Assembly: GCA_016223085.1 (NCBI GenBank)
Contig: JACRPS010000004.1
Coordinates: forward strand, 248,001-312,000
Source: Chloroflexota bacterium
Lineage (GTDB): Bacteria; Chloroflexota; Anaerolineae; Aggregatilineales; Phototrophicaceae
Length of the DNA stretch: 64,000 bases
Direction of reading: 5' to 3'
Positions 19,608 through 57,784 of this stretch are shown piece after piece. The notes beneath the pieces are model-generated. The model did not search any database and was not told where the DNA came from. It was given only the letters and a program-made list of their open reading frames with translations. The number at the start of each line of letters is the position of its first letter. Within the stretch, counting starts at the first letter, position 1. Position numbers and translations under genes: made by a program.

Positions 19608-19611
19608 ACCG

Positions 19612-24608: not shown

Positions 24609-25313
24609 ATGTCGTCACCTGGCCGCTTCATCGTCCTCGAAGGGAATAATGGTCTGGGGAAAACCACGCAGGCCCATTTGCTCGACCAGTATTTGACACA
24701 GCAGGCCATCCCACACCGGCTGTACTGTTTTCCCCGTTACGACTCGTTTTTTGGACAGATGGCAGCGGCGTTTTTGCGCGGCGAGCACGGCAGCATTGAC
24801 AGCACCAGCCCCTATTTTGTGGCGCTGGTGTTCGCCAATGACCGGATGCTGGTGCGGGACGAAATCCGCGCCGCGCTGGATGATGGCCTGATCGTGCTGG
24901 CCGACCGCTGGGTATCATCCAATCTGGCGGTGCAGGCCTCAAAGTTCAGCGACGACAGCAAACGCGAGGACTTCAACCGCTGGGTGCAGCAGTTGGAATA
25001 CGAGGTTTTTCGGCAGCCGCAGCCAGACCTGACTATCTACCTGCGGGCCAGGCCGGACATCACGTTTCGCAATCTGCGAGGGCGCAAGCAGCAGGATTAC
25101 CTGAAGGGCAAAACCGACATCGAGGAAGCCAACAGCCGGCTGGTGCAGGCCAGCTTCGAGCAGTACGAACGGCTGGCCACCGCACTGCCTGACTGGGTTA
25201 CGCTTGATCTGGAAACCGGCGCGCCGCCGGGGAAAATCCTGCCGATTGACACGGTACACGCCGCCATCCTGGAACTGCTGCATCAGCACCGCATTTTACC
25301 CCGGAAAGAATAG
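24609..25313 (+). CDS. tmk: thymidylate kinase
   Basis: About 234 residues. It has the P-loop LEGNNGLGKTTQA near the N terminus, DRWVSSNLAVQASK (the DRY-like TMP kinase motif) and a lid region (LRGRKQQDYLKGKTDIEE). The enzyme phosphorylates dTMP to dTDP. The P-loop reads NNGLGKTT where most relatives have a D at the second N position. ATG 24609 gives the right family length; the frame is open up to 24543. It is divergent from the HtrA gene and convergent with the aminotransferase gene, whose stop is two bases away. Confidence 0.88.
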   Translation: MSSPGRFIVLEGNNGLGKTTQAHLLDQYLTQQAIPHRLYCFPRYDSFFGQMAAAFLRGEHGSIDSTSPYFVALVFANDRMLVRDEIRAALDDGLIVLADRWVSSNLAVQASKFSDDSKREDFNRWVQQLEYEVFRQPQPDLTIYLRARPDITFRNLRGRKQQDYLKGKTDIEEANSRLVQASFEQYERLATALPDWVTLDLETGAPPGKILPIDTVHAAILELLHQHRILPRKE

Positions 25314-25315
25314 GT

Positions 25316-26428: not shown

Positions 26429-26435
26429 TGTTCCT

Positions 26436-29573: not shown

Positions 29574-29590
29574 CACGGCAATTGTCACCT

Positions 29591-30229
29591 CTACTCAACG
29601 AGGTGATGCTGGAGCGCCAGTGCAACGGCCTCACTGCGACTGTCCACACTGAGTTTGGAAAAGATATTACTTACATGATTCTTGACGGTTGACCGGCTGA
29701 TGTACAGGCGCTCGCCGATTTCACGGTTGTTATAGCCACGCACGATCAGGCCCAGCACTTCGCGTTCGCGTTCGCTCAGGTCAAACTGTGGCGACGGGCG
29801 TGACACGGATTCAATCAGCGCCTGCGTGGCCTCTGGCGACAGCGTTGTCTGCCCGGCGTGCGCCTTGCGGATTCCATCCGCCAGTTCGTCAATCGAGACA
29901 TTTTTTAACAGGTAGCTGATCGCGCCCGCTTTTAACACTGCTGGTACCAGTTCGTCATTTTCAAAGCTGGTCAGCGCCACGACCTGCGTCTGGGGATGAT
30001 TGCGCCGGATAACGCGGGTTGCTTCGATGCCATCCACTTCCGGCATCACCAGGTCCATCACCACCACATCCGGCTGAAGTTCGTCACACAAGCGGATGGC
30101 TTCAGCGCCGTTCGACGCTTCGCCTACAAGCTGTAAATCCTCACAGGTTTCCAGAAAAACCGATAAGCCATTACGCACAATCTCGTGATCGTCAACGATA
30201 ATAATACGGATACGGCTTGATGCAGTCAC
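29591..30229 (-). CDS. NarL/FixJ-family response regulator
   Basis: 212 residues. The receiver domain starts IRIIIVDDHEIVRNGL, with the phosphoacceptor Asp in VVVMDLVMPEVDG, Thr/Ser in VVALTSFEND and Lys in YLLKNVS. The C terminus is a LuxR-type helix-turn-helix (LSEREREVLGLIVRGYNNREIGERLYISRSTVKNHVSNIFSKL). GTG 30229 has GGAG nine bases upstream. The kinase gene follows directly. The pair senses an external or membrane signal through the Cache domain and regulates transcription; the target genes are not evident. Confidence 0.93.
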   Translation of the reverse strand: MTASSRIRIIIVDDHEIVRNGLSVFLETCEDLQLVGEASNGAEAIRLCDELQPDVVVMDLVMPEVDGIEATRVIRRNHPQTQVVALTSFENDELVPAVLKAGAISYLLKNVSIDELADGIRKAHAGQTTLSPEATQALIESVSRPSPQFDLSEREREVLGLIVRGYNNREIGERLYISRSTVKNHVSNIFSKLSVDSRSEAVALALQHHLVE

Positions 30230-30464
30230 AATCCGTTACTCCATTTGAACGACATACTTCCGTCACGCCTTCCATTATAGCGGAAAACTGACCAGGTGTT
30301 ATAGTCATTGGAATAAACTGGTTCGGGAGATTGTGGCACATCCGTTAATGGGCAGCAGCGATAACCTGACCGGCAGAGTGGAGTCGGGCGGAAGTGCTGA
30401 CAAAATACTGAAACCGGGGCTTCCGGCAGCGCGTCCCACTCACCGGAAACCCCACCTGTAACCT

Positions 30465-31964
30465 TCAACCGGTGGGCTGACCGGCGTGCAACTGAGTGTG
30501 CAGAAATTCGCTGACAACCCGTTCGCCACGAGGGGTCAGCCGCACCTGTTCATCCTCCAGTATGACCAGATTCAGCGTCCGCAGCCGGGCAATCGCCAGC
30601 CGGGTGTGGGTCGGAGTCCAGCCGAGGTGTTCGTGCAGCCGGTCAGCGGCAAGTTCCTCTGGCGCTTCAGGCCGGCCCTGATGGTGGTAGATGTGCCCCA
30701 GTATCATCTGATCGGCAAACTGCTGCCGTTGCATCCGGCGGCGTAGGGCGGCGGCTACCAGACCGTAGCGGGGCGACAGCACCCACGCGGCCAGGAAAAA
30801 CAGGAACGCCATGATAACCATCGAGGCAGAAATGGACGAGTTCCACTGGGTATAACCGTCCAGCCCAACCGTACGGTCGAGAAAAACCAGTACGTCGCTG
30901 ATGGGCAGGATGCCGAGGAGCTGCCCGCGCGCCAGTTCGTAGCCGGTCATGGCAGACAGTGCGCCAAAGACCGGGCTAATCAGCAGCATGATGGCCAGCC
31001 GGTCAGTCAGCAGATAGGCAGTAGCCGCCGGGATGATGAAGAAGGCCACCACCAGCACCGAGCCAACCGCGTCGAAGGCGCTGACGGCGGTGACGCTGAC
31101 CAGCGTCATCAGCATATAATTGAGCGCAACGGGGCGGAAACCGAGCGCTGTCGCCAGCGCCGAGTCAAACGAGGTGAGCTTTAACTCCTTATAGAACAGC
31201 GCGATGAAACCAACGTTCAGCAGTGTCACCAGCCCCATCAGCGTGAGCGACCGGGGCCAGAACACCAGCGCGGGTGGTTCAGGAATCAGGCGCTCGCGCC
31301 ACGCTTCGGCGGCACTGTACGTGCCGCAGTTGGCACAGACCTCTTCAAACACCGCTTTCGGGTCGCGCGGGGTGATGCCGCCGGACGAACAGTTGATGCA
31401 CCGCCGCCCCATTTCGGCGCGGGGATGGTCGGGCGTAATCACTACATCGTCACAGTTGTCAAAGCAGTGGCTGTTGGTGTTGGCCCAGGCGACGCCAATC
31501 TCCCCCACCAGCACCGCGTCCGTGTCCAGATGAACGTCATCGGCATACCTTGAGATGATAATGATGGCGATGGCAAACAGCAGCGGAAACACCAGACCCA
31601 GCGCCGCATCCTGTTTGACCAGTCCCGACCGCTGCACCAGTTCAGTGAGGATAACGGTCAGGACGCCAGCAGCGGCAGCGCCGATGACCAGCAGCGGCGA
31701 ACTAAGATCGGCTTCCGTACCCAGCAGCCCCACCATCACGAAGAAAGCGACCACAATCCCCAGTAGCACGGTGTGGCTGATCGCATCACTGGTCAGCGAC
31801 ATTTTCCGCAGCAGCAGGAATACTCCCAGGCAGGCAGTTGAGATGGACACCAGCGCGCCGATCAGGATGGCAACCGCGCGCGGGTCGCTGAGGGCAGCGT
31901 TGAGCTGCTCAATCGGGATGAACTTCACCAGAATAGTGATGATAATCTGTTCCAGCGCGTACAT
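30465..31964 (-). CDS. metal ABC transporter permease with Cys-rich insert, fused to DtxR-like domain
   Basis: About 499 residues from ATG 31964, after AGGAG and overlapping the upstream gene region by one base of spacing. Residues ~1-170 and ~250-390 form the ABC-3 permease of the ZnuB/MntB type (ALVSISTACLGVFLLLRKMSLTSDAISH). Between them sits an insert of about 70 residues with Cys pairs (HCFDNC, CINC, CANC), not normal for the family. The last ~85 residues are a winged-helix DtxR/MntR-like segment (MILGHIYHHQGRPEAPEELAADRLHEHLGWT, then VRLTPRGERVV). Permease-DtxR fusions are known in several phyla. The domain could sense the transported metal or control the operon. Confidence 0.88.
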   Translation of the reverse strand: MYALEQIIITILVKFIPIEQLNAALSDPRAVAILIGALVSISTACLGVFLLLRKMSLTSDAISHTVLLGIVVAFFVMVGLLGTEADLSSPLLVIGAAAAGVLTVILTELVQRSGLVKQDAALGLVFPLLFAIAIIIISRYADDVHLDTDAVLVGEIGVAWANTNSHCFDNCDDVVITPDHPRAEMGRRCINCSSGGITPRDPKAVFEEVCANCGTYSAAEAWRERLIPEPPALVFWPRSLTLMGLVTLLNVGFIALFYKELKLTSFDSALATALGFRPVALNYMLMTLVSVTAVSAFDAVGSVLVVAFFIIPAATAYLLTDRLAIMLLISPVFGALSAMTGYELARGQLLGILPISDVLVFLDRTVGLDGYTQWNSSISASMVIMAFLFFLAAWVLSPRYGLVAAALRRRMQRQQFADQMILGHIYHHQGRPEAPEELAADRLHEHLGWTPTHTRLAIARLRTLNLVILEDEQVRLTPRGERVVSEFLHTQLHAGQPTG

Positions 31965-31965
31965 G

Positions 31966-32955
31966 TTACGGTTTCTCCTGAAGCCCCGCCAGCGCGGCGA
32001 ACCGCTGCCGGTCACGCTGCTGCTGCCGCAGCGTCCAGATCACGCCGCGACCGGGCGCGATCGCCAGCGATACAGCCACCAGCACCGACGCCACCACAAT
32101 AATCAGCGGGCCGGTTGGCAATCCCTGATCGAGCGCGCTCAGAATCGCGCCAGAAGCGCCAGAAACCGCGCCCAGCAGTGCAGACAGCACGACCATCTGG
32201 CCGAGATGGTGCGTCCACTGGCGGGCGGCGACCGCCGGCGCAATCAGTAGCCCGACCATCAGGATGACGCCCGCCAGTTGCAAGCCCAGTACGATGGCAA
32301 CGACGATCAGCGTGGACAGCAGCATATCCAGCGTCCGCACCGGGTAGCCGTTGGCGCGTGCGAATTCGGCATTGAAGGTGATGAGCTTAAACTCCTTCCA
32401 GAACAGCGCCAGGCAGATGAAGACGACAACGCCAACGACACTGATCAGAATCACATCCTGCTGGACGATGGCGGCAGCCTGGCCGAAGATGAACGTATCC
32501 AGCCCGGCCTGGCTGGCGTCCGGCCTTTGCTGAATGTAGGCCAGCAGCGCGATACCGACGGCAAAAAACGCCGCCAGCGCCATGCCCATCGCCGTATCCG
32601 GCTTGATACGGGTCGTACGTGTCACCACCGTTACAAAATGCGCTGCCAGCCAACTGGCGATTCCCGCGCCCAGCAGCAGCCAGCCCAGGTCACGCCCGGC
32701 GATCAGGAACGCGACAGCCACGCCCGGCAGCGCCGCGTGCGAGAGTGTGTCGCCCATCAGGCTCTGCTGCCGCAGCACCGCAAACGCGCCTAACGCGCCG
32801 CTGACCGTACCGAGCATCGCCCCGCCGACGGCAACGGTCGCCAGCGTGTAGGTGTACCGGATGTTAAACAACCAGGCACTGACAGGCACAGCCAGTACAA
32901 ATAGAATGGCAAGAGCGCCGATCCCCAGCCAGCCGCGTTTCTCCTGCTGTGTCAT
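31966..32955 (-). CDS. metal ABC transporter permease (ZnuB/MntB family)
   Basis: 329 residues with about eight to nine transmembrane helices. Typical ABC-3 motifs are FAVLRQQSLMGDTLSHAALPGVAVAFLI (the region that contacts the ATPase) and GLQLAGVILMVGLLIAPAVAARQW. It is the first of two different permeases in this operon, so the transporter is probably a heterodimer of 31966-32955 and the DtxR-fused permease. It follows the ATPase gene by three bases. The substrate is Mn, Zn or Fe by family, not resolvable here. Confidence 0.9.
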   Translation of the reverse strand: MTQQEKRGWLGIGALAILFVLAVPVSAWLFNIRYTYTLATVAVGGAMLGTVSGALGAFAVLRQQSLMGDTLSHAALPGVAVAFLIAGRDLGWLLLGAGIASWLAAHFVTVVTRTTRIKPDTAMGMALAAFFAVGIALLAYIQQRPDASQAGLDTFIFGQAAAIVQQDVILISVVGVVVFICLALFWKEFKLITFNAEFARANGYPVRTLDMLLSTLIVVAIVLGLQLAGVILMVGLLIAPAVAARQWTHHLGQMVVLSALLGAVSGASGAILSALDQGLPTGPLIIVVASVLVAVSLAIAPGRGVIWTLRQQQRDRQRFAALAGLQEKP

Positions 32956-32958
32956 GGC

Positions 32959-33729
32959 CTAAACCTCCATCCGGTCGCGGCTGCTGGCCAGCGTTGAGAT
33001 GCGCCCACCATAGGTCTTCATGAGGTTGTCCTCGGTGTAAACGACCTCGGTCGGACCGCTGGCGATCAGTTGCACGTTCAGCAGCGCCACCCAGTCGAAG
33101 TATTCTGGCACGGTTTGCAGATCGTGATGGACGACGATCACTGTCTTCCCCCGCGCGCGCAGTTCGTGCAGCAGGGTGACAATGGCGCGTTCGGTCACGG
33201 CGTCTACGGCGGCAAAGGGTTCATCCATGAAATAAAGCTGCGCATCCTGCACCAGCGCGCGCGCCAGGAAGGTGCGCTGCTGCTGCCCACCGGAAAGCTG
33301 GCTGATCTGCCGATGCGCCAGATCGGACAGGCTAACCTGTTCCAGCGCGGCCATCGCCAGCTCGCGTTCCCGTTTGCCCGGTCGCCTGAACCAACCCAGC
33401 TTGCCATACAACCCCATCATCACCACATCCAGCACCGATGTTGGGAAGTCCCAGTCCACACTGCTGCGCTGTGGCACGTAGCCCACCAGGTGGCGCGCTC
33501 TGGCATACGGCTGGCCGTAGAACCGGATGTCCCCGGTCGCACGGGGGATCAGGTCCAGTGCGGCTTTAATCAGCGTGCTTTTCCCCGCGCCATTTGGACC
33601 GACAACGGCCATCAGTACGCCCTCTGGCACCTGCAAATCCACATCCCACAGTGCCGGGCTACTGTTGTAGGCGACCGTCAGATCGTGGATGTCGAGCGCA
33701 AAATCATCATGGTTGGTATGGTTCACCAT
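32959..33729 (-). CDS. metal ABC transporter ATP-binding protein (ZnuC/MntA-like)
   Basis: About 256 residues from ATG 33729, directly after AGGAGGTATCC, an ideal ribosome site. Walker [10 protein letters not shown], signature [17 protein letters not shown], Walker [13 protein letters not shown] and switch His in VIVVHHDL. The Q-loop reads [13 protein letters not shown], with the typical PQR-S-DW form of Mn/Zn transporters. It drives uptake through the two permeases downstream. A gap of about 118 bases separates it from the substrate-binding gene upstream. Confidence 0.93.
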
Positions 33730-33847
33730 TGGATACCTCCTCAATGTGATGAAACCGCATCGAGCAGTTCCGCTGGCGGGACAGGTTCAAGCCCTTCAGG
33801 CCAGGGCGGAATGGGATAGCCATACGATTGTAAGATCGTGATGATGT

Positions 33848-34708
33848 TTAGTACAACTGGCGCACCCCCAGCCCAACCTGTCCGCCGCCCGCATTCACCG
33901 CTTCCCGCACTGCTTCGATGGCGTCCGGCGGCACGCTGCTTTCAACAAACATCACTGGAATCCCGTTGTCCATGACAAACCTCGCGATGTTCTGAATATC
34001 AGCCACGCCGGCTTCGTCTTCCGTGCTGATCCCCTGCAAGCCACGCACGTTCCAGCCAAAGGCCGCGCCGAAGTACTGGAACGCGTCGTGGGACGTGACC
34101 AGCGTGCGCTGCTGTTCCGGCACCTGGGACATCGCTTCTAGCGCCCAGGTGTAGAGGGTGTCCAGATCGGCAATATAGGCGTCGGCATTAGCGGCGTAAA
34201 CGTCGGCATGTGCCGGGTCCACTTCGCTTAAAACTTCCACCAGCCCTTCCGCCGCAAGCTGCCAGTTACGAGGGTCAAACCAGAAGTGCGGGTCATCCAC
34301 ATTGGTTAGTTCTTCGGATAAGGTGAAACCGCCAATGACAAACCCTGCTGCTTTAACTGGGTCGGACAGCGCGTATACTCGCACATTGCGCTCGCCGAGG
34401 GCTTCAAACACGGTGTCAAACTGGCCTTCCAGATGCAACCCACTGTAGATCACCAGGTCAGCCTGACTCATGGCGGCGATATTCGCTTCAGTCGGCTGGT
34501 ACAGGTGGGGGTCAACACCGGCGCCCATGAGCGGTGTAATTTGCACCCACTCGTCTGCCCCTTCCCCGGCCAGGATACGGGTCAGGTCGGTGGCCTGAGT
34601 AGTGGTCGTAACCACTTTCAATGCATGATCATTGTTGGCATGTACTCCGCCAACGAGAACGAGCAGCATCAGCAGGAGGCTGAAGAGTATTCGAGTGAAG
34701 GCAATCAT
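33848..34708 (-). CDS. metal ABC transporter substrate-binding protein, truncated at the C terminus
   Basis: About 286 residues from ATG 34708, after GGGAGAG. It has a signal peptide (FTRILFSLLLMLLVLVGGVHA), and metal-ligand motifs in DPHLYQP, DPHFWFDP and TSHDAFQYFG, with an acidic ligand near FVESSVPPDA. The family then normally continues past 'LYSDALG', whose Asp is the fourth ligand, to an end near 'NVDTIV'. Here the frame stops right after VRQLY. Another frame just downstream reads NIITILQSYGYP, like the missing tail, so an out-of-frame deletion or a sequence error is likely. It is the first gene of the metal-transport operon. Confidence 0.82.
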   Translation of the reverse strand: MIAFTRILFSLLLMLLVLVGGVHANNDHALKVVTTTTQATDLTRILAGEGADEWVQITPLMGAGVDPHLYQPTEANIAAMSQADLVIYSGLHLEGQFDTVFEALGERNVRVYALSDPVKAAGFVIGGFTLSEELTNVDDPHFWFDPRNWQLAAEGLVEVLSEVDPAHADVYAANADAYIADLDTLYTWALEAMSQVPEQQRTLVTSHDAFQYFGAAFGWNVRGLQGISTEDEAGVADIQNIARFVMDNGIPVMFVESSVPPDAIEAVREAVNAGGGQVGLGVRQLY

Positions 34709-34747
34709 GTAGAGACTCTCCCTTAGTAAACATCTACGGCAACTATG

Positions 34748-34778
34748 TTTAGCCAACCCTTTTTAGGCTAAGCTAACA
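34748..34778. promoter_or_regulatory. possible DtxR/MntR-type operator
   Basis: The region between the binding-protein gene and its divergent neighbour holds TTTAGCC and, from 34762, TTTAGGCTAAGCTAAC. Read on the minus strand the second part is TTAGCTTAGCCTAAA, close to the TTAGG-TTAG-CCTAA pattern of DtxR/IdeR-type boxes. It lies 40-70 bases upstream of ATG 34708. A metal-dependent repressor, possibly the DtxR-like domain fused to the operon's permease, could act here. No footprint can be inferred from sequence. Confidence 0.4.
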
Positions 34779-34894
34779 TCAAGCTGTTGTCAAGTGGTTT
34801 GTTGAAGCTGATGTTCTCATTCGAATTACATTTTTCTAATAATCGCCTTCGTAAAGTAGAGACATAAAAGCAACCCGGTGGGAACGGAGCAGCT

Positions 34895-35401
34895 ATGACT
34901 GAACGTGTTGGAGACCTGGAAATTGGACAGGACCTGGAATTCCAGCGGCGTGCCTGGGCCGTTCAGCGGGTGGCGTGGATAGGGATGCTGCTGTTTATTA
35001 TCGCTGCCCTGTTAGGACTGCTAGGCGATTCCGGCCCTCTGAGCAACGCAACTGCTGGCAGCGAAGCGGACGGGCTGCAAATCCAGTACCACCGGTTTAT
35101 GCGGCAGGGCAAACCCATGTCACTGACAGTTCAGGCCGAGGTGCCAGCGGGACAAAACACTCTGCGCCTGCGGGTTAATCGCGCTTACCTCGACCGCTTT
35201 CAGCTTGACCAGATTACCCCCGACCCGGAATCGGTTGCTGCGCGTGACGGACAGCTTGTCTACGAGTTTGCGCTGGAAAATCCTGCCGGTCAGGTGACAA
35301 TCAAGTTCAACATGCGCCCAGAGCAAGGTGGGTTCGTAACCGGAGAAATCGGCCTCGATGGTAGTGAAACGCTTTCCATCAACCAGTTTATCTATCCATG
35401 A
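34895..35401 (+). CDS. small single-pass membrane protein next to YetF
   Basis: 168 residues with one transmembrane helix ([19 protein letters not shown]) after a short cytoplasmic N terminus, then a beta-rich exposed domain ([21 protein letters not shown], then [13 protein letters not shown]). I do not recognise a named family. The start has GGAG six bases upstream. It precedes the DUF421 gene by 22 bases on the same strand and is probably co-transcribed with it. Confidence 0.75.
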
Positions 35402-35928: not shown

Positions 35929-36002
35929 GGGGGTGTGGTGTAGCGGCCTAACATACTGCCCTGTCAAGGCAGAGACCGCGGGTTCGAATCCCGTCATCCC
36001 CG
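35929..36002 (+). tRNA. tRNA-Asp (anticodon GUC)
   Basis: The 74 bases fold as a full cloverleaf. The acceptor stem pairs GGGGGTG (35929-35935) with CATCCCC (35995-36001), with one G-U. The D stem is GTGT/ACAT, the anticodon stem CTGCC/GGCAG encloses CTGTCAA with anticodon GTC, and the T arm is GCGGG-TTCGAAT-CCCGT. The discriminator is G at 36002; CCA is not encoded. The recombinase gene on the opposite strand ends inside it, and base composition changes here, so the tRNA 3' half is the probable attachment site of the element. Confidence 0.95.
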
Positions 36003-37573
36003 ACTAGAGTATCATAATTTATGATGTTCGACAATAGAACCCACAAAATCGGCGTGGGTTCTATTGCTTTTATTTCCCCCTCGTACACGTACACCTTGTT
36101 GTACATCAGCCTAAACCACGCCTCGCTTTCTTCGAGCGTGGCTGCATCCCAGATATTCCTGATATTGCCGAGCAGGTCGGCTGCCCGTTCCAAGTCAATC
36201 ATTCGGCCTAGCGTTGGCAGTGGCGTGGCATTGATCTGCGCTTGAATCTCATCGCGCATTTGCCGATATTCGCCCTCGCTGATGTCTCCCAACAGAAACA
36301 ACTGCTTGAGCCGTTCCAGCCGCCCCTGTAGTGAGGTCTGCTGATTCTTGACTGCCGCGTACTGCGGCTGGTCTTTGGTTATCAGCGCCAGCACTCTGTC
36401 CTTCCAATCTGTCGGAACATTCAGACTGAGCAGGATTTCAGCCGCCGTAGCTTCAAACACTTCAGCCGCCACTGACTTCAGATGAGATGAACATTCATGG
36501 CCCTTATCTTTTGCTGGGTCGCGGTAGCGGCGATCACCACGTAAATTCCATCCACGCCAGTTATTGCCACAACCAGCGCAGACCAGCAGCGATGCCAGCG
36601 GGTAGGTGGCGGTGTTTTTGGGCAAACCCCGGCTGAAGTTGGCCGCACGTCGCGCTCGAACTTCCTGACATTTCTCAAAGAGATCGCGGCTGATGAGGGG
36701 TTCATGCCGACCTGGTAGATACTCCTTCGGCTGACTTTTCTTGCCCTGGTAGCTGGTTTCGCCAATGTAGAAGCGATTTTGCAGGATGTAGATGGTTGTG
36801 TCCTTACCGAAGGGGTTGTTGCCAAACTGCCCACTGGTACGGTAGCCCGCTGCTGTGAGAATGTTGGCGATGTCGAGGTCGGAGTAGATGCCGAGGCTGT
36901 ATTTCTCGAATGCCAGTACGACCCCCGGCCCATTGATCGGGCAGATCAACGCATCCGTTTCCCCGTAGCGCCCTTCAGCACTTTCCAGTGTTTCTTCAAT
37001 GAGGGTCGCCAAGCGGCTGTAGTCCGCCTCAGCGATCTTTCCCGCCTGAAAGTCCTCGCCCAGTTGCGTGAGCATATCTTTCAACCGTCGTGGTGTCGTG
37101 TAGCCGAAAGCCAGCGTGCCGTTCCAGCCGCCTTTCCGCGCCCGCTCTTTCTTGCCCTTGATGGTCTCCTGGCTGAGGTTGTCGAGATACCACTCGGCAA
37201 TCGCGGCCATGAGTACAAGCTGAACCTTCCCCGTTGGCGTGGTGAAGTCAAAGCTCTCATTGACCGAAACGAAGGACACATTACGATCTTTGAGATATTT
37301 GAGATAGAAGAGGACATCCTGAAGCGAACGGCTGAAGCGGTCAAGTTTGTGAACAATCAGCACGTCGAACAGTCCCGCTTCGGCGTGACGAAGCATCTGC
37401 TGGAACTCTGGACGCAGAGCATTCTTGCCACTGCGTCCCTTCTCCTCATAGACTTGAACGACATTCCAGCCGCGTTGGACGGCGAACTGTCTAGCGATCT
37501 CGGCTTGAGCAGAGAGGGAGTGGCCTTCGATTTGTTCTTCGCTGGAAACACGGGTATAGATGGCGGCACGCAT
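35948..37573 (-). CDS. large serine recombinase (integrase of the element)
   Basis: About 541 residues from ATG 37573, after AGGAG. The resolvase domain starts MRAAIYTRVSSEEQIEGHSL (catalytic Ser within RVSSEEQ) and has LDRFSRSLQDVLFYL. A 'recombinase' DNA-binding domain follows (GGWNGTLAFGYTTP), then a Zn-ribbon (LLVCAGCGNNWRG...HECSSH) and a coiled-coil C terminus. This architecture is that of large serine integrases. The last ~18 codons (GDDGIRTRGLCLDRAVC) are simply the complement of tRNA-Asp, so the natural C terminus was probably altered by integration. Confidence 0.92.
   Translation of the reverse strand: MRAAIYTRVSSEEQIEGHSLSAQAEIARQFAVQRGWNVVQVYEEKGRSGKNALRPEFQQMLRHAEAGLFDVLIVHKLDRFSRSLQDVLFYLKYLKDRNVSFVSVNESFDFTTPTGKVQLVLMAAIAEWYLDNLSQETIKGKKERARKGGWNGTLAFGYTTPRRLKDMLTQLGEDFQAGKIAEADYSRLATLIEETLESAEGRYGETDALICPINGPGVVLAFEKYSLGIYSDLDIANILTAAGYRTSGQFGNNPFGKDTTIYILQNRFYIGETSYQGKKSQPKEYLPGRHEPLISRDLFEKCQEVRARRAANFSRGLPKNTATYPLASLLVCAGCGNNWRGWNLRGDRRYRDPAKDKGHECSSHLKSVAAEVFEATAAEILLSLNVPTDWKDRVLALITKDQPQYAAVKNQQTSLQGRLERLKQLFLLGDISEGEYRQMRDEIQAQINATPLPTLGRMIDLERAADLLGNIRNIWDAATLEESEAWFRLMYNKVYVYEGEIKAIEPTPILWVLLSNIINYDTLVGDDGIRTRGLCLDRAVC
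36033..36065. terminator. hairpin after tRNA-Asp, probable terminator
   Basis: A 12-bp perfect inverted repeat, AATAGAACCCAC and GTGGGTTCTATT, encloses a nine-base loop and is followed by GCTTTTATTT. It lies 31 bases after the tRNA and would end its transcript. It also lies inside the 3' coding part of the antisense recombinase gene, so the same hairpin may reduce read-through toward it. Confidence 0.65.
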
Positions 37574-37589
37574 GGTTTTTGCTCCTGAT

Positions 37590-37796
37590 TTAGCTGGCTT
37601 TAGCCTGAACGATGCTGCTGGCTTCTTCAGCCATGATTCGTTTGGTGATACTGGCAAGCAGGATGAGAAAGGAATCAATCTCAACCGCTGATGCGGCTTG
37701 CGGTTCGCCCTTCATCTGGATGACACCTCCGTGATCGGCAATATGGTGATCGGGCTGTGCGCTGCTGGACAATTCAGACGTTGATGTTGAACACAT
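37590..37796 (-). CDS. small hypothetical protein upstream of the serine recombinase
   Basis: About 68 residues from ATG 37796, after AGGGGAACAGCT, a good ribosome site. The frame is open further upstream to 37928 without support. The second half is a helix (VEIDSFLILLASITKRIMAEEASSIVQ). The gene ends 16 bases before the recombinase start, so the two are co-transcribed. I do not recognise the family. Small proteins in this place sometimes act as recombination directionality factors; here that is only a guess from position. Confidence 0.6.
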   Translation of the reverse strand: MCSTSTSELSSSAQPDHHIADHGGVIQMKGEPQAASAVEIDSFLILLASITKRIMAEEASSIVQAKAS

Positions 37797-42171: not shown

Positions 42172-43200
42172 ATGGATACTCGGCACATCAACATCCTGAA
42201 CGTTATAGGTGGTAATCTGAAACGTGCTGCTGCTACGAATGGCGGCGAGTACGCTGGAACTTGCCCATTTTGCGGAGGACATGATCGCTTTCGTGTCTGG
42301 CCTATGCCAACTGTTGGCAGTCCGCGTTTTTGGTGTAGGCAATGTAATCGAACGGGGGACGTAATCCAGTTTATCATGGAGCGCGATGGTGTGGAATTCA
42401 AAACTGCGCTGGAAAGACTTGGATTAGGCGCTTCGCCATCGTATTCAGTTACGTATCAAAGGCCAAGAAGTGCTTCTAGTCCGAGAGTCTGGAAGGAAAA
42501 CGCTCAGGCTATAGGTTTACAGGACACTGCGTGGCAACAGGCAGCGGCAGAATTCTGCCGTATATCCACTGACCAGTTATGGAGTGCTGATGGTCAGCCT
42601 GCCCGTAACTACCTGTATGAGCGTGGGCTTACTGATGGTGTGATTGAGGCCGCCCAACTTGGTTACAACCCTCACACTCAAACGCAGTACTGGGGAAGTG
42701 TTGCTGTCTGGTTATATAGCGGAATAGTCATTCCCTGGATTAATGGAGGGAATTACTGGAAGGTAAACATTCGGCGACGACCATCGCAATTGAAACCTAA
42801 TGAGCAGCGATATATGCAGGCAAAAGGTGGGGGAAACGGGCTTTATCGAGCCAGTCAGGTAGCCCCTGGTTGTACTGTCGTTATCACCGAAGGTGAATTT
42901 GATGCGCTATGTATCTGCGCGGCATTGGAAAGCTCGAAGCTGGATTCTGTCGTTCCTGTTGCTACCGGGAGCACAGGTGGTAGTCGCCTGCTGAACTGGG
43001 TCGCAACGCTTGCGAAATCAGATCGCATGTTGGTTGCTTTCGATGCAGATGATGCCGGTGATAACGCTTCGAGGTGGTGGCAAGATGTATTTGATGATAA
43101 AGCTGCTCGCCTACGTCCTACTCGGCACGATGTGACAGATATGTTTAAGGCAGGCGACGATATTGTTGCCTGGATTTCTGATGCCCTGAGTTCTCCATAG
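42172..43200 (+). CDS. primase with CHC2 zinc finger and Toprim domain
   Basis: 342 residues from ATG 42172, after AAAGGAG. The N terminus is a CHC2-type zinc finger (TCPFCGGHDRFRV...RFWCRQCNRTGDVIQFIM). The C-terminal Toprim domain has VVITEGEFDALCICAALE and MLVAFDADDAGDNASRWW, with the conserved acidic residues. This is the domain set of DnaG-like primases of plasmids and phages; it makes RNA primers for lagging-strand or origin synthesis. With the RepA-like helicase and the repeat cluster between, it completes a small replicon. Confidence 0.92.
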   Translation: MDTRHINILNVIGGNLKRAAATNGGEYAGTCPFCGGHDRFRVWPMPTVGSPRFWCRQCNRTGDVIQFIMERDGVEFKTALERLGLGASPSYSVTYQRPRSASSPRVWKENAQAIGLQDTAWQQAAAEFCRISTDQLWSADGQPARNYLYERGLTDGVIEAAQLGYNPHTQTQYWGSVAVWLYSGIVIPWINGGNYWKVNIRRRPSQLKPNEQRYMQAKGGGNGLYRASQVAPGCTVVITEGEFDALCICAALESSKLDSVVPVATGSTGGSRLLNWVATLAKSDRMLVAFDADDAGDNASRWWQDVFDDKAARLRPTRHDVTDMFKAGDDIVAWISDALSSP

Positions 43201-43211
43201 CTGTTATGGAG
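43193..43211. promoter_or_regulatory. palindrome CCATA-N5-TATGG, copy 1
   Basis: CTCCATA (43193-43199) and TATGGAG (43205-43211) are perfect inverted arms around GCTGT. The core matches the copies at 44523, 44913 and 45823. The palindrome overlaps the primase stop codon and runs into the following terminator-like hairpin, about 90 bases before the HNH gene start. It may be the operator of an element-encoded regulator. Confidence 0.5.
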
Positions 43212-43236
43212 GGTTAACCCCCCTCCACGCATTTTT
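43207..43236 (+). terminator. probable terminator after the primase gene
   Basis: TGGAGGG (43207-43213) pairs with CCCTCCA (43221-43227) around a seven-base loop and is followed by CGCATTTTTG. The T run and the short GC-rich stem fit an intrinsic terminator for the replication genes. Confidence 0.6.
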
Positions 43237-43299
43237 GCTCCTGGCTTCCCTCAAACTCAAAGGTCAGTATAACCAATTCCTCAACGTAAAGGATACCTC

Positions 43300-43902
43300 A
43301 TGTCGGTTCGCAGAATCCCCCTCACAAAAGGCCAATTCGCTATCGTAGATGAGTGCGATTGCGATGCACTTATCAGTATTGGCAATTGGTGCTATAGCAG
43401 CAGCGGCTATGCTGTACACTACCAAACGGACGAGAATGGAAAGCGAAAAACGCTTTTCATGCATCGCGTCATTATGCAGCGCAAACTTGGTCATCCCCTT
43501 CCAGCAAGCTATCAAGTAGATCACATTTCTGGTGCAATCCAGGGTAATCGAGCGCGGCTTGACAATCGCCGCTCGAATCTGCGCCTGGCAACACACAGCC
43601 AGAACCAAGCCGCAAAAGGTTCACAGAAGAACTCGACCAGCGGTCATAAGGGTATCAATTTTCGGCAGGGGAAATGGGATGTGCGACTACGGTACAAACG
43701 TCAGCGCATCAACCTGGGACGCCATGACGACTTTGAAAAGGCGAAAATGGTGTATCGCTGCGCCCATCACCTGCTTTGGGGCGAATTCTCGACGGAGCAG
43801 AATGTTGAGAATGTCCCTTCGGAGATCGAACAGTGGGTCTGCGCTGTCCTAAACCAGCACGGCATAGTTGTTTCTTCAGATGTAAATTCTACAGCAGCGT
43901 GA
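43300..43902 (+). CDS. HNH endonuclease with AP2-like DNA-binding domain
   Basis: 200 residues. The HNH core reads HRVIMQRKLGHPLPASYQVDHISGAIQGNRARLDNRRSNLRLATHSQNQ, with DH, N and N-x-R in place. Then an AP2-like fold: TSGHKGINFRQGKWDVRLRYKRQRINLGRHDDFEKAKMVY. This is the domain set of free-standing homing-type endonucleases common in phages and mobile elements. It probably helps the element or itself spread. It is convergent with the decayed phosphoesterase gene, whose old frame overlaps its 3' end. Confidence 0.88.
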   Translation: MSVRRIPLTKGQFAIVDECDCDALISIGNWCYSSSGYAVHYQTDENGKRKTLFMHRVIMQRKLGHPLPASYQVDHISGAIQGNRARLDNRRSNLRLATHSQNQAAKGSQKNSTSGHKGINFRQGKWDVRLRYKRQRINLGRHDDFEKAKMVYRCAHHLLWGEFSTEQNVENVPSEIEQWVCAVLNQHGIVVSSDVNSTAA

Positions 43903-43939
43903 ACTGCGCCCCCTTGTATTGCTTCGGGTTTGCGCCCTC

Positions 43940-44458
43940 TTATCTCGATGAATTCCCGGTAAGGACGATCTCATCGAACCACTTGAACATCTGCCGGAGA
44001 ATGAGGACGACCAGATTGCGGCTGCTTTCGTAGCCCAGGTCGCTATCATTTGCCAGGACTTGCGCCCAATGGTTGATACCTTCCTGATCGGACGCGATGA
44101 AGTCCCCGGCGATGATGAGGCGCTTAATCCCGTGCCACATGGCCGTCAGCAGCACCAGCAGCAGGTACAGGGGCGAGAAGTCCGGCACTTCGATGTCGCT
44201 GATGATAATGGCGTCGTCGGCCTCGATTTCCTCATAGTCGAGGTATTGCCGCGACGGAGAGGCGGGGATGTCCACCTGCTCGAAGGCTTCCTTGAGATAC
44301 AGGCGTTTGTAGTAACGGTGGTCGCGCAGCTTCCGCTCAAGCGATTGGGGCTTCATCCCATAGTCCACCGCCCGGAGCGCAATTGCTTCTGTGTCCCCGG
44401 CGTCATACAGCTTGAGCAGTTCCTCGCGTTCGGGGATGGTGATGTCTTTCCAGGCCAT
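43940..44458 (-). pseudogene. decayed metallophosphoesterase-like gene
   Basis: About 172 residues from ATG 44458 (AGGAG upstream). The start MAWKDITIPEREELLKLYDAGDTEAI is like phage-type regulators or phosphoesterases. Then comes a calcineurin-like core: IIISDIEVPDFSP, LIIAGDFIASDQEG and IVLTGNSSR. The usual metal ligands are missing: DxH reads DIE, and GNH reads GNS. The frame stops right there, but in the same frame after the stop about 16 more codons (EGANPKQYKGAQFTLL) look like the lost tail. An internal deletion or nonsense change is likely. Confidence 0.55.
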
Positions 44459-44522
44459 GTAGGTGTAGTCTCCTGGGGGCTGATTGTCAGAGAGCAGGGG
44501 GCGCTAATGTGGTTGTACGCCC

Positions 44523-44550
44523 CCATATCTGTTATGGAATGTTCGGTTTA
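44523..44550. repeat. left copy of a 28-bp perfect inverted repeat
   Basis: These 28 bases are the exact reverse complement of 45810-45837. They begin CCATATCTGTTATGG, which is itself the CCATA-N5-TATGG palindrome (44523-44537), and end GGTTTA. The repeat lies 43 bases before the LexA-like HTH gene. It could be a terminal repeat of a small mobile unit, a duplicated operator region, or both. Confidence 0.8.
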
Positions 44551-44592
44551 TTTCTACCGCTCGATTGACCTCACATAAAAGGAGACAGCACC

Positions 44593-44850
44593 ATGAGGGT
44601 CAAAAAGATCAATCCGTTACCCGACCAACTCAGCGAGAATGAAATGATGGCGATGCAGTTTAAAGAGGGCTACGTCACCACAAAGCGAAGATCACCCACC
44701 ACGCGGGAGATCAGCGCCGCGATACACCTTTCTGTCTCGGCCACACACGACCTAATACAGCGACTCATTGAGTACGGCTATCTGGCGCGGAAAAGCCGAC
44801 GGCAGCGCCATCGTAACTATAGGGTGCTGCGCTCAACTGTCACTTCGTAA
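44593..44850 (+). CDS. LexA-type winged-helix DNA-binding protein
   Basis: 85 residues. The core (SPTTREISAAIHLSVSATHDLIQRLIEYGYLARKSRRQRHRNYRVL) resembles the N-terminal DNA-binding domain of LexA: PTTREIS, a recognition helix with SVSATHDLI, and the wing. There is no S24 peptidase domain, so it would not self-cleave. ATG 44593 follows AAAGGAG. It lies just downstream of a CCATA-N5-TATGG palindrome, so autoregulation is plausible. It ends 28 bases before a terminator-like hairpin. Confidence 0.75.
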   Translation: MRVKKINPLPDQLSENEMMAMQFKEGYVTTKRRSPTTREISAAIHLSVSATHDLIQRLIEYGYLARKSRRQRHRNYRVLRSTVTS

Positions 44851-44878
44851 TGGCAATTGCACCCTGAGATAGCACAAT

Positions 44879-44908
44879 GCCCCTGGTTTTGGTTACAGGG
44901 GCGTTTTC
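44879..44908 (+). terminator. probable terminator of the LexA-like gene
   Basis: GCCCCTG (44879-44885) pairs with CAGGGGC (44896-44902) around a ten-base loop, followed by GTTTTC. It lies 28 bases after the stop codon of the HTH gene. Confidence 0.65.
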
Positions 44909-44912
44909 ACTT

Positions 44913-44927
44913 CCATATCCGTTATGG
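44913..44927. promoter_or_regulatory. palindrome CCATA-N5-TATGG, copy 3
   Basis: CCATATCCGTTATGG differs from the 44523 copy by one base in the spacer. It directly follows the terminator-like hairpin of the HTH gene. The arms are perfect. It is likely a protein-binding site rather than coding sequence. Confidence 0.5.
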
Positions 44928-45202
44928 GGCTTTGGGTGACTGCCGCTGCTCCTTCGTTTGCACGGTACATGCGTTTCTGGCCGCGATGGTCGGTATGCCA
45001 GAGAGTGTACAGCACGCCGCCAAAAAATTTACTTTCGACATGGAGAGAGGGGGACAAGATATGTACCTGTCCCCTATTTTGGGGATGAATTTGCCTGAAA
45101 CTGGCCTTTTTGTCCAGTTTTGCCTGGTTTTTCCCCAGAAGTGACTGGACTCTTTGGAAGGAGGAGTCCAGTTGTGAGCCTGGTCTGCACACTATGCCGC
45201 GC

Positions 45203-45745
45203 TCACTTACCCCATCTATAGATGTCACTGGGGTGAGGTGGCAGTGATTTCAGCCATCGTCGCCATTCTTTTCGTCCTTCTAGGGTATCGGCGCAGGGCA
45301 TATCCTCTAACGGTTCACGATGACGTTTGAAGGAGTATCCCATTGCATTTAGGAGTGTGCGGAAACGCTTGTCGCTGATCTCGACTCCTGTTTTCTCCTC
45401 CATCAACGTATTAAGGGCTTTCGCGTCCATCAGATGCATATCCTGGGCGAACTCGGCCATCACAGTTTCAAGCAGTTTGCGATATTCCTCAGTAGCAAGA
45501 GGTGGTCGCCCCTGACGCGGCTGCTCTAACAGTCCCTCAATTCCTGCCGCCCGCCACCGTTTGAGCCAGGCATAAAGCGGCTTTCTCGTTTTGACGCCGA
45601 CGGCATTGGCAACGGCAGCAAAGGTGTTGCCTTCGTCGAGCAGCAGAAGGGCTTTTGCTCGTTGCCGAACTTCTGGACGTTCATCATTCATCGCGGCCTG
45701 AAGCTGCTCTTTTTCGTTCGGGGTTAGGCGGAAGGAATGGGACAT
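45203..45745 (-). pseudogene. truncated IS630-type transposase, HTH part only
   Basis: About 180 residues from ATG 45745 (CAGGAG upstream). The helix-turn-helix region (MNDERPEVRQRAKALLLLDEGNTFAAVANAVGVKTRKPLYAWLKRWRAAGIEGLLEQPRQGRPP) is the typical N terminus of IS630/Tc1-like transposases. It continues with the linker (RFRTLLNAMGYSFKRHREPLED). It ends ...PHPSDIYRWGK, just where the DDE catalytic domain should begin (usually near 'DI-F-DE'). So the protein cannot cut DNA by itself but may bind it. It faces the LexA-like gene inside the inverted repeats. Confidence 0.7.
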
Positions 45746-46121
45746 GGGGTTTTGCTCCTGGGGATTAAGGAAGGCGGAAGGATGACGACAGGCCGGTGCT
45801 GCCGCGCCATAAACCGAACATTCCATAACAGATATGGAGGCGGTTTATTGACAGAGGCGTGGAAAAGAGCAACGTAACCCACAGTAGCCGCCGCTCTATT
45901 TTTTTCTGGAACTCTGAATAAACGGAGAGATTGGATTTTGCGGTGAAACTATTATACCACAACGAGGCATCAGCTTGAAGGCTCACATAATGGCGATCAT
46001 CCGCGCTGGTCAAATCGAAACTTCAAAAGGACTTGTTAGAGCCTGCTTGCGGTAAGGTGGCGGAAGTGAGATAATTTGCAGTATCCAAGTATTCAAGATA
46101 GTTATTACTTAGAAGTACGTT
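45746..46121. other. intergenic region upstream of the TIR gene
   Basis: 376 bases. It holds the right 28-bp repeat (45810-45837) with its palindrome and then an AT-rich stretch leading to the TIR gene. Promoter-like AT-rich segments occur near 46060-46110, but no clear consensus promoter is seen. The TIR start at 46122 has no strong ribosome site. I see no gene here. Confidence 0.5.
45810..45837. repeat. right copy of a 28-bp perfect inverted repeat
   Basis: Exact reverse complement of 44523-44550. It contains the palindrome CCATA-ACAGA-TATGG at 45823-45837. It lies 64 bases before the start of the truncated IS630-type gene on the minus strand, so it occupies the likely promoter region of that gene. 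Confidence 0.8.
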
Positions 46122-47222
46122 ATGCCTCGCATCTTCATTTCCTACCGACGCGAAGACAGCCGAACCATCACTGGGCGGATTTATGATCGCTTGGTCACGG
46201 CCTTCGGTAGAGAAAATGTATTCAAAGATGTAGACAGCGTTCCCCCCGGCAAAGATTTTAGAGGCGTCATTAAAGAAGCGGTTAGTAACTGTGATGTGGT
46301 GCTGGTGATAATCGGGCCACGTTGGCTACATACTGCTGATAAACAGGGCAACAGGCGTCTTGATAATCCACAGGACTTTGTGCGTGTCGAGGTTGAAACA
46401 GGTCTTCAGCGACAGGGGGTAGATGTAATTCCACTCCTTGTAGAAGGTGCGTCCTTTCCAAGCGAGGACGAGTTGCCCACCGCGTTAAAGCAATTGGCCT
46501 TCCGAAACGCATGGCCCGTGCAGGACGACCCTTACTTCCACCGCGATATGGATAGGCTGATAGATCATTTAAGGCCGATGAGGTATTGGAAGAATGTTCC
46601 CTGCAAATGGATTGTGGGCGCTGTAGTGATTCCCATTTTAGCAGCACTTATAGCGGGTGTATTGCCAGCCGTCTTGAACCAAGATACGGTCACCCCCACA
46701 AATGCAGTAATACTTCATACAGTGACGCCATCAGCTACCTCGACGTTGACGCCATCTATTTCCCCAACCAGCACGCCGACAACGACATATAGTCCAACGG
46801 ATTCTCCGACGCCAACGGTTACGACTTCACCGACGGATACTGCGACGAATACACCGACAAAAACTTCTACTCCGACGGACACAGCATCTCCTACGAGTGC
46901 GCCAATTCATACCCCCGAATCCTCGCTATCGAATGTGGAAATGATAACACCGACATCATTGGAAGTCTCTGCTCCTCGTTCGTATCCATGTGATGCTACC
47001 GTTATCTATAATCAGACTGCATTGCTGAACGTTATACGTGCTGGACCTTCTAGCAAATCGTCATTTAGACCTCCCATTCGGCAAGGTGCTACTATAAAAA
47101 TTCTGTCGAAAGATCAAGAAGCAACAAATGAATTCTGGTATCACATTGCTGATAGTGAGGGCAACGTGCTGGGTTGGATACCTACAGATTATGTTATCCC
47201 AGGTGAGGACTGTCCTGTTTAG
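46122..47222 (+). CDS. TIR-domain protein with transmembrane helix, Thr/Pro stalk and SH3-like domain
   Basis: 366 residues. The N-terminal TIR domain (~1-150) has PRIFISYRREDSRTITGRIYDRL, the box VFKDVDSVPPGKDF, VLVIIGPRWL and VRVEVETGL, where a catalytic Glu could lie. A transmembrane helix (WIVGAVVIPILAALIAGVLPAVL) is followed by a Thr/Ser/Pro stalk of about 80 residues and a C-terminal SH3-like domain (LLNVIRAGPSSKSSFRPP, then WYHIADSEGNVLGWIPTDYV). This places TIR inside the cell and the SH3 domain outside. TIR domains of bacteria often cleave NAD in defence; here an envelope-linked sensor role is possible. Confidence 0.85.
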   Translation: MPRIFISYRREDSRTITGRIYDRLVTAFGRENVFKDVDSVPPGKDFRGVIKEAVSNCDVVLVIIGPRWLHTADKQGNRRLDNPQDFVRVEVETGLQRQGVDVIPLLVEGASFPSEDELPTALKQLAFRNAWPVQDDPYFHRDMDRLIDHLRPMRYWKNVPCKWIVGAVVIPILAALIAGVLPAVLNQDTVTPTNAVILHTVTPSATSTLTPSISPTSTPTTTYSPTDSPTPTVTTSPTDTATNTPTKTSTPTDTASPTSAPIHTPESSLSNVEMITPTSLEVSAPRSYPCDATVIYNQTALLNVIRAGPSSKSSFRPPIRQGATIKILSKDQEATNEFWYHIADSEGNVLGWIPTDYVIPGEDCPV

Positions 47223-56728: not shown

Positions 56729-57784
56729 ATGAATCCCCTTCAAACCAGTCAAATCACGGTCTTCGATGACTGTACCACTGCGGCCATATCTGTTATGCTG
56801 AAACAGCAACATGCTCGATTGGCACAACTTGACCGCCCCAATTCGCAGTGTTCCATCTCCGCCCGTAATTATGATAGTTCAATCAAAGCTCTTGGTGACT
56901 ACTTGGCACGAACAGGAGCGGTACTGCCTACCAAGAGCGTTCTCGCTCAATGGCGTGATGATATGCTGGTTGGACGTGCTGACGATAGTGGTAGAAGCTA
57001 TGCCGTGAGGAGCGTGAATGCACGCCTCTCTGCTGCTCGAAAGCTATTACGTGCTGTAGCGGACGATGTGACGGACATCACCGTAAAACTCGTCCTTAAT
57101 GACTGGGCCAAAGTGGAGGATGCGAAAGCAACTGTCGTTCAAGATAAGACCGAGATAGATTATGGTCGCCGCCTGACTTTAGAGAGTCTACGGGTATTGG
57201 TGCAGGCCATTGATACTCAAAGCCTTAAAGGACTGCGAGATCGGGCTATCATATCTGTTATGGCAGGGGCTGGATTGCGAGTGTCTGAAGTTGTAGCCTT
57301 AACCATGAAGGATGTGTTTTCAACCGTAAACGAAACCGGACAGCGTGGCATTCGGGTTCAGCGAGGCAAGCACAACAAGAGCCGTATTGTCGTTCTGAAT
57401 GGATGGAACAGTTGGGTCTTGCAGGCAGTACGGGCATACACTGATGCACTTGGGCTAGACTCAGAAGCACATCCAAATGAAGTGGTTTTCCGAGGCGTTA
57501 AGCGCGAGAAGGGCAGTCGCTATTCCTCCCAGGGTGAACGGCTATCTGCACGCAAGGCCGAAGAAGCGGTTAACAGCTATAAGGCTGAGTATATGGGGCA
57601 TATGATGGTAATTAATTGCCATGACCTGCGGCGTACCTACGCCAAGATTTGTAAGCAGTCAGGGATGTCGTGGGAGGCTCTACGTGCAAACATGGGCCAC
57701 AGCAGCGTAACCGTCACCGAGAAGTATGTCGGTTTGGAGGTTGACTGGTCAGAGCGCGTTCCCAATTGGACAATTGAGTTGTGA
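56729..57784 (+). CDS. tyrosine recombinase (XerC/D-like), intact active site
   Basis: 351 residues from ATG 56729, after AAAGGAC. All catalytic motifs are present: AGAGLRVSEVVAL (Arg I), RGKHNKSRIVVL (Lys), CHDLRRTYAKI (HxLR), MGHSSVTVTEKYVG (GHSS and the Tyr nucleophile). The N-terminal SAM-like domain (SIKALGDYLARTGAVLPTKSVLAQWRDDML) binds arms or core. It is more complete than the recombinase at 37991. It may move the element, a smaller element within it, or resolve multimers. It has two near-copies of the element palindrome in its coding part, probably by chance. Confidence 0.9.
   Translation: MNPLQTSQITVFDDCTTAAISVMLKQQHARLAQLDRPNSQCSISARNYDSSIKALGDYLARTGAVLPTKSVLAQWRDDMLVGRADDSGRSYAVRSVNARLSAARKLLRAVADDVTDITVKLVLNDWAKVEDAKATVVQDKTEIDYGRRLTLESLRVLVQAIDTQSLKGLRDRAIISVMAGAGLRVSEVVALTMKDVFSTVNETGQRGIRVQRGKHNKSRIVVLNGWNSWVLQAVRAYTDALGLDSEAHPNEVVFRGVKREKGSRYSSQGERLSARKAEEAVNSYKAEYMGHMMVINCHDLRRTYAKICKQSGMSWEALRANMGHSSVTVTEKYVGLEVDWSERVPNWTIEL

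What the first reader, a model, noticed from the sequence alone, without database searches (positions are those of the whole stretch)
43193..45837. Recurring palindrome CCATA-N5-TATGG in intergenic sites
Seen: four perfect copies at 43193, 44523, 44913 and 45823; all share the oriented core CCATA(T/G)C(T/C)GTTATGG, the last on the opposite strand. They sit upstream of the HNH gene, the LexA-like gene and the truncated IS630-type gene, and after a terminator. Partial copies inside the tyrosine recombinase gene (56785, 57248) lack one arm end. Inferred: an operator of an element regulator, perhaps the LexA-like 85-residue protein, controlling several element promoters.
Basis: partly seen in the sequence, partly recalled or inferred. 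Interest (0 to 1): 0.65.

Follow-up and report, generated by a model that had tools for sequence, protein, structure and literature searches.

The report
Element-specific palindromes at gene-module boundaries
A short mirror-image DNA word recurs inside one mobile element of an Anaerolineae bacterium; related elements carry a different word at comparable places, often right after a gene's end, and in one genome gene blocks have been joined exactly at the word, so it looks more like a joint between movable gene modules than an ordinary gene switch.

Summary
The palindrome is real: four perfect copies in the window (0.07 expected) and a fifth 25 kb past the fourth, all with one oriented core; the sixth CCATA-N5-TATGG of the 6.03 Mb genome has another core. 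The LexA-like-operator reading is weak. Other elements of the same family, one of them in this genome, carry their own recurring 14-15 bp palindrome, called P (TGCTAACnGTTAGCA, GGATTACGTAATCC, CCAATCCnGGATTGG, CGTCTTGCAAGACG and others), in 13 of 18 loci with a homologue of the window's HNH gene. The two elements of this genome keep four P at nearly the same spacings but with different sequence. Several P lie 3-22 bp after stop codons, some between convergent genes. In genome G059 (32 exact copies) homology blocks end at P edges (12 of 109 end clusters; 0.4 and 2.0 expected in two nulls) and different genes follow equivalent P. Its consensus there is YY-P-RR with unconserved flanks: too short for dif or attC. 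Best reading: a symmetric protein-binding site marking, and probably serving, exchange of gene modules (0.45). Main rival: a dispersed KorB/parS/matS-like site (0.3). No binder or enzyme is shown.

The parts
43195..43209 (+). palindrome copy P1, CCATAGCTGTTATGG; contains the primase stop codon, 91 bp before the HNH gene
44523..44537 (+). palindrome copy P2, CCATATCTGTTATGG, 56 bp before the LexA-like wHTH gene; followed by AATGTTCGGTTTAT
44913..44927 (+). palindrome copy P3, CCATATCCGTTATGG, 63 bp after the wHTH stop codon, behind a terminator-like hairpin
45823..45837 (-). palindrome copy P4, CCATATCTGTTATGG read on the minus strand, 77 bp before the IS630-like gene; followed by AATGTTCGGTTTAT
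44518..44551 (+). left arm of 34-bp inverted repeat (P2 plus TGTTCGGTTTAT), 97% complementary to the right arm
45809..45842 (-). right arm of the 34-bp inverted repeat (P4 plus TGTTCGGTTTAT)
56784..56798 (+). 14 of 15 copy inside the tyrosine recombinase gene
57249..57263 (+). 14 of 15 copy inside the tyrosine recombinase gene
42172..43200 (+). primase (CHC2 zinc finger, Toprim); P1 overlaps its stop codon
43300..43902 (+). HNH_3 endonuclease; homologues in other elements lie near those elements' own palindromes
44593..44850 (+). 85-aa LexA/IclR-like winged HTH protein
45203..45745 (-). 180-aa IS630-like HTH protein without a DDE domain
56729..57784 (+). tyrosine recombinase; its 79% identical relative in G010 is followed 5 bp after its stop by that element's palindrome

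Best explanation
P is an element-specific, symmetric recognition site of 14-15 bp (18 bp with its flanking pyrimidines/purines) that marks the ends of gene modules in a family of Anaerolineae plasmid-like and integrative elements, and most likely serves as the site at which modules are joined or exchanged. A dimeric element protein would bind P; modules flanked by P could be gained, lost or swapped at it, in either orientation because most P are symmetric. Each element has its own P sequence (in G059 several loci share one), changed together at all sites as its protein changed. Shown: the site families, their positions, their sequence turnover and the coincidence of homology breaks with P. Inferred: binding by a dimer, recombination at P, co-evolution. 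Not known: the enzyme.
For: Recurring or genome-shared P in 13 of 18 loci with a homologue of the window HNH gene (11 if the weaker, GC-rich L237 and L238 are dropped). Two elements of this genome with P at spacings 1328/390/910 and 1366/397/893 but different sequence. G059: 32 exact copies, 0 controls; 12 of 109 clusters of homology-block ends lie within 3 bp of a P edge, against 0.4 expected with P shifted at random (largest 5) and 2.0 with P jittered by up to 100 bp (largest 9), 0 of 5000 trials each reaching 12. The P after dnaE/polY is followed by HNH in L239/L241 but by a 277-aa gene in L269/L271, and in L243 that same gene side meets P with unrelated DNA on the other side. P lies 3-22 bp after stop codons of tyrosine recombinases (L267, G010), HNH (G012, L206), dnaE (L239, G012), ParM (L271) and XRE (G000:C13). 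In L265 and L266 P occurs about once per one to three called genes. 38 non-identical G059 sites: consensus YY-P-RR, no conservation beyond 2 bp on either side.
Against: No recombinase is common to the P loci: the tyrosine recombinase of L267 has no relative among the held loci searched, and none of the six other held relatives of the window's enzyme besides G010's (L150-L153, L155, L156) has a palindrome of arms 6 or more within 40 bp after its stop. 14-18 bp is short for a tyrosine recombinase site, and even and odd palindromes occur. Block ends at P could partly reflect P being conserved in otherwise diverged intergenic DNA; the 12 clusters represent about four or five events. Some P lie inside genes (dnaE, ParM). 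In G059 P also lies beside ordinary-looking chromosomal genes (L267, L270). P in the window and in C13 keep their positions, which also fits a binding site. The one empty-site test was uninformative: the region is absent from G058. Ascertainment by HNH inflates the HNH link; G010 has P but no HNH match.
Confidence: 0.45

Rival explanations
1. P is a dispersed site for an element-encoded DNA-binding protein that marks the replicon for segregation or global control, as parS, matS or KorB sites do; gene modules break near P only because P lies between genes.
For: Near-invariant palindrome with graded YY/RR flanks (28 of 38 non-identical G059 sites exact); copies inside coding sequence of ParM (G012, L245), dnaE (L239) and a 451-aa G012 gene; four of the elements (G012, L206, L238, L239) carry MerR-coiled-coil, ParR-like and ParM genes.
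Against: The window element and G000:C13 show no ParM, ParR or MerR relatives in the held DNA; precise block ends at P; no candidate binder tracks P: XRE, for one, has an identical DQRAISEYENGKRRLSAIDLPV stretch in the two elements of this genome while P differs.
Confidence: 0.3
2. P is an operator of an autoregulated element regulator (LexA-like wHTH or IS630-like HTH) controlling HNH, wHTH and IS630-like promoters.
For: Window P1, P2 and P4 lie 56-91 bp before three genes; P plus TGTTCGGTTTAT or a close variant stands before both HTH genes in the window and in G012, the TTTA starting about 17 bp from the palindrome centre by eye.
Against: Recurring P in G059, which has no wHTH or IS630-like match; P after stop codons and between convergent genes; P plus TGTTCGGTTTAT in G010, and one copy in G038, faces no evident gene start; of 21 IS630-like loci examined only the 4 that also have HNH exceed their simulated controls (L209 and L210 reach 3, as do controls).
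Confidence: 0.15
3. The pair 44518-44551 / 45809-45842 is the terminal inverted repeat of a decayed IS630-type or MITE-like transposon; the other copies are unrelated or derived.
For: 34 bp, 97% complementary, 1.3 kb apart, beside an IS630-like HTH gene; inward-facing pairs of the same motif also in G012 and, less clearly, in G038.
Against: Only HTH domains, no DDE; TA precedes the left end but GT follows the right end, so no TA duplication; no other copy of GGAATGTTCGGTTTAT in this genome at 0 or 1 mismatch; lone P copies elsewhere.
Confidence: 0.07

Closest known systems
Xer/pdif modules of Acinetobacter plasmids
   Same: short inverted-arm sites between gene modules on plasmids, with module shuffling (search listing and abstract starts only: PMC13141974, PMC6449649)
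   Different: dif is 28 bp (PMC3025954, abstract start); P is 14-15 bp with unconserved flanks, and its sequence differs between elements
Integron gene cassettes with attC
   Same: site right behind the cassette gene, arrays of unrelated genes, lineage-specific sites (attC papers seen as listing only; these features recalled)
   Different: P lacks the long folded attC structure and directional asymmetry; no IntI identified
parS, matS, KorB operators
   Same: near-invariant dispersed palindromes recognised by a dimer (recalled; KorB papers as listing only)
   Different: no ParB, MatP or KorB identified (none searched for); module ends coincide with P
REP elements with RAYT
   Same: extragenic palindromes between genes, lineage-specific, many copies as in G059 (recalled)
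   Different: no conserved foot tetranucleotide around P; no RAYT was searched for
PAISt island of Streptomyces turgidiscabies
   Different: 8-bp target; dispersed element-specific copies not mentioned in what I saw

Membership tests
dif/pdif Xer site | 28-bp site (11-bp arms and 6-bp spacer, recalled) | tested here: not met
   38 non-identical G059 sites: information only over 14 bp plus 2 flanking bases each side
Integron attC | long folded site with RYYYAAC / GTTRRRY core boxes | tested here: not met
   no conserved sequence beyond 2 bp outside P in G059; half-sites such as TGCTAAC or CCGTAAC do not fit RYYYAAC (boxes recalled)
Integron attC | IntI integrase | not tested
   no IntI-specific search was made
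LexA-type operator | bound by the co-encoded LexA-like protein | tested here: inconclusive
   indirect only: similar recognition stretch with different palindrome; binding not testable here
Upstream operator | sites lie at promoters | tested here: not met
   of the 82 sites tallied 10 lie between two gene 3' ends and 4 between two 5' ends; several are 3-22 bp after stops (gene calls are longest-ORF and sites include homologous copies, so approximate)
IS630 terminal repeat | TA target duplication | tested here: not met
   TA on the left, GT on the right
IS630 transposase | DDE catalytic domain | tested here: not met
   no DDE family among the matches of the 180-aa protein
REP/RAYT | conserved foot tetranucleotide beside the palindrome | tested here: not met
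   no conserved flanking bases within 25 bp except YY/RR
parS/matS/KorB-like dispersed site | cognate ParB, MatP or KorB protein | not tested
   no search with those families was made; MerR, ParR, ParM found in four elements
Site-specific recombination site | recombination at the site by a named enzyme | not testable with these tools
   only block-end coincidence

The most novel reading that the evidence does not exclude
Anaerolineae mobile elements use an undescribed module-exchange system whose recombination site is a perfect 14-15 bp palindrome placed behind genes, and whose sequence is private to each element and turns over in concert at all sites, giving each element, or each genome as in G059, its own exchange community.
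Probability: 0.3. Interest if true: 0.82.

Novelty: new variant of a known kind. Interest (0 to 1): 0.6.

Why it matters
If right, it is a cassette-like system in a poorly studied phylum, with restriction and other defence genes among the genes it borders, a site much shorter than dif or attC, and site sequences private to each element. It would also make site-protein co-evolution directly testable: two elements in one genome keep the same site positions with different sites. If the main rival holds, it is a new family of dispersed plasmid marker sites with the same strong turnover.

Tried and rejected
LexA-like operator: weakened by the G012 comparison and by a genome lacking the protein. IS630-like protein as general binder: G059 and G044 have no match, and 17 of 21 IS630-like loci examined do not exceed their simulated controls. 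XRE as binder: identical helix stretch in the two elements of this genome. A shared tyrosine recombinase: none common to the P loci. Chance copies: the matches in G016 and G037 lie inside unrelated genes and were dismissed. Search for WTGTTCGGTTTAT: 30 matches in 98 genomes, of which 4 (window 2, G010 1, G012 1) follow a strong palindrome in register; the other 26 were judged chance. In the class sample (396 genomes) 2 of 4 matches to AATGTTCGGTTTAT are not in the window and lack a palindrome. Recurrence statistic alone: control stretches also reached 4 or 5 with GC-rich words (window 1-18000: 5; 17001-35000: 4; L151: 4), so it is not decisive by itself; L249 was set aside for that reason and L237 and L238 are marked weaker. 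G058 as empty-site comparison: region absent. wHTH relatives in viral contigs: none confirmed; in genome contigs only the G012 and G038 loci. HNH matches in 12 plasmid and 652 phage records are all under 60% identical, many annotated as HNH or homing endonucleases. Viral HNH locus L274: recurrence of 3 against 0-2 simulated, with a 5-base spacer, not followed. The stop-proximal sites were read from the list and not tested statistically. No structure was predicted.

Prior description: searches listed no title or abstract start about these palindromes. Only part of two lists was seen (15 of 44, 12 of 312), no paper was opened, and the library holds open-licence papers only.

Full report
Observation. 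Four perfect CCATA-N5-TATGG copies lie at 43195, 44523, 44913 and 45823, against 0.07 expected. A fifth lies at G000:C26:318864, window-scale 70864, 25 kb past the fourth; the sixth in the genome has a different core. The reversed control pattern occurs 8 times genome-wide, so the bare count is ordinary; the clustering and the shared core are not. Two 14-of-15 copies lie inside the tyrosine recombinase gene; by arithmetic about 0.008 such hits are expected in the 92 kb scanned, a figure made after seeing the data.

Anatomy in the window. P1 overlaps the primase stop codon and precedes the HNH gene; P2 precedes the LexA-like wHTH gene; P3 follows it; P4 precedes the IS630-like gene on the minus strand. 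P2 and P4 are followed by AATGTTCGGTTTAT and form a 34-bp inverted repeat. The IS630-like protein matches HTH families but no DDE family; its nine best relatives have open frames of 191-244 aa, so it looks like a family of stand-alone proteins.

Relatives with a different palindrome. In G012:C65 (same length as an Anaerolineae MAG contig named) HNH, IS630-like and wHTH genes stand with GGATTACGTAATCC-type sites (11 hits at up to 3 mismatches in 19 kb, 0.6 expected), three of them followed by TGTTCGGTTTAT or a variant with one or two changes. G010 has TGGATAACCGTTATCC-AATGTTCGGTTTAT 5 bp after a recombinase 79% identical to the window's, and a second P copy 100 bp before an HsdM-like gene (HsdM by eye). 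G038 has GGAACCGGTTCC with TGTTCGATTTAT. The TTTA starts about 17 bp from the palindrome centre in these, counted by eye.

A second element in the same genome. G000:C13 carries HNH, IS630-like, recombinase and XRE relatives and six copies of TGCTAACnGTTAGCA at up to 2 mismatches. Its first four are spaced 1366, 397 and 893 bp; the window's 1328, 390 and 910 bp. Outside the HNH gene the DNA between them is hardly similar. One of its P lies in the short gap between the convergent XRE and helicase genes. So P differs between elements in one genome while positions are kept.

Scope. Of 18 loci holding the 19 HNH matches (9 of 98 family genomes), 13 carry a recurring or genome-shared P (window, L154, G012:C65, L206, L195, L237-L241, L243-L245) and 5 do not (L242, L246, L247, L248, L249; L249 shows only GC-rich repeats). 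L237 and L238 are the weakest, with four GC-rich copies each, a number that three control stretches also reached. Of 21 IS630-like loci examined, the 4 with P above simulated controls are the 4 with HNH. Ascertainment by HNH means the link should be read with care; the P of G010 has no HNH.

G059. CGTCTTGCAAGACG occurs 32 times, control 0. The 38 non-identical sites at up to one mismatch that I could read (28 exact; a few pairs are homologous copies) give YY-CGTCTTGCAAGACG-RR: pyrimidine at -1 in 71 of 76 folded strands and at -2 in 59 of 76, nothing beyond. Within the held loci the next most frequent palindromic words reach 6, and simulated sequence 4-7, against 45 for P. P separates unrelated genes or runs of genes, among them a tyrosine recombinase flanked by P on both sides, a type I restriction system and a Uma2-like gene, and lies also beside ordinary-looking chromosomal genes (Uma2 recalled).

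Junctions at P. Homology blocks between G059 loci begin or end at P: L239:3876 with L240:7201 and L244; L243:2887 with L269:8386 and L271; L265:8112 with L268:13240. Of 109 clusters of block ends, 12 lie within 3 bp of a P edge; 0.4 expected under random shift (largest 5), 2.0 under jitter of up to 100 bp (largest 9), 12 never reached in 5000 trials each. The 12 are not independent. At the P after dnaE/polY, HNH follows in L239 and L241, a 277-aa gene in L269 and L271; in L243 that gene's side meets P with unrelated DNA beyond. Trivial explanation to keep in mind: a conserved P in diverged intergenic DNA also ends alignments.

Position. P lies 3-22 bp after stops of recombinase (L267, G010), HNH (G012, L206), dnaE (L239, G012), ParM (L271) and XRE (C13). 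The dnaE and HNH ends carry P in different genomes with different P sequences. Of the 82 sites tallied (approximate gene calls, homologous copies included), 26 fell inside called ORFs, many of them probably spurious, 37 between tandem genes (23 and 14 in the two classes), 10 between two 3' ends, 4 between two 5' ends, 5 with no called gene on one side.

Interpretation. A plain operator does not explain P behind stops, between convergent genes, or in a genome lacking the HTH proteins. A symmetric site that marks and probably joins modules explains positions, arrays and junctions; a dispersed marker site explains near-invariance and copies inside genes. I put 0.45 on the first and 0.3 on the second. 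The P-plus-TGTTCGGTTTAT form may be an extra feature of one sub-branch; in the window it stands before two genes, in G010 before none that I can see.

Limits. Papers were seen as search listings and abstract starts only; matS, parS, RAYT and attC details are recalled.

Noticed in passing
window 58835-61462 and L009:24-6315 (contig continuation): Sigma-like 875-aa protein matching the MzaA defence model (6e-41), followed beyond the window by a large ATPase-like protein without PADLOC match, a PglZ-like and a HerA-like protein: a probable defence cluster.
   Followed up: partly
window 35929-37684 and window-scale 75930-75942: Large serine recombinase gene overlapping tRNA-Asp; the last 13 bases of the tRNA recur at window-scale 75930, inside a second serine recombinase gene. 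All five P lie between these two places, so they may be the element's borders.
   Followed up: partly
window 46122-47222: Protein with an N-terminal match to the ThsB TIR-like model (5e-11), at the start of a cargo region with repeat-rich secreted-looking proteins (the latter by eye).
   Followed up: no
L265:2048-2061, L268:8778-8791: Another tyrosine-recombinase-like gene is followed just after its stop by a 14-bp perfect palindrome TGGCTCTAGAGCCA, found nowhere else in the held G059 loci.
   Followed up: partly
L269:7767-8381, L271:3484-4098: 204-aa frame joins the start of a Y-family-like polymerase gene to the end of dnaE, as if the stretch between them in L239 were missing (polymerase names by eye).
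   Followed up: no
L245:1300-2100: Four palindromes lie in a stretch with loosely repeated motifs near a ParM-like gene; could be an origin or centromere region.
   Followed up: no
L269:6892, L269:8386, L243:2887: Three G059 palindromes are followed within about 15 bp by CTGTCCGGAA, reminiscent of the window's TGTTCGG behind P2 and P4.
   Followed up: no
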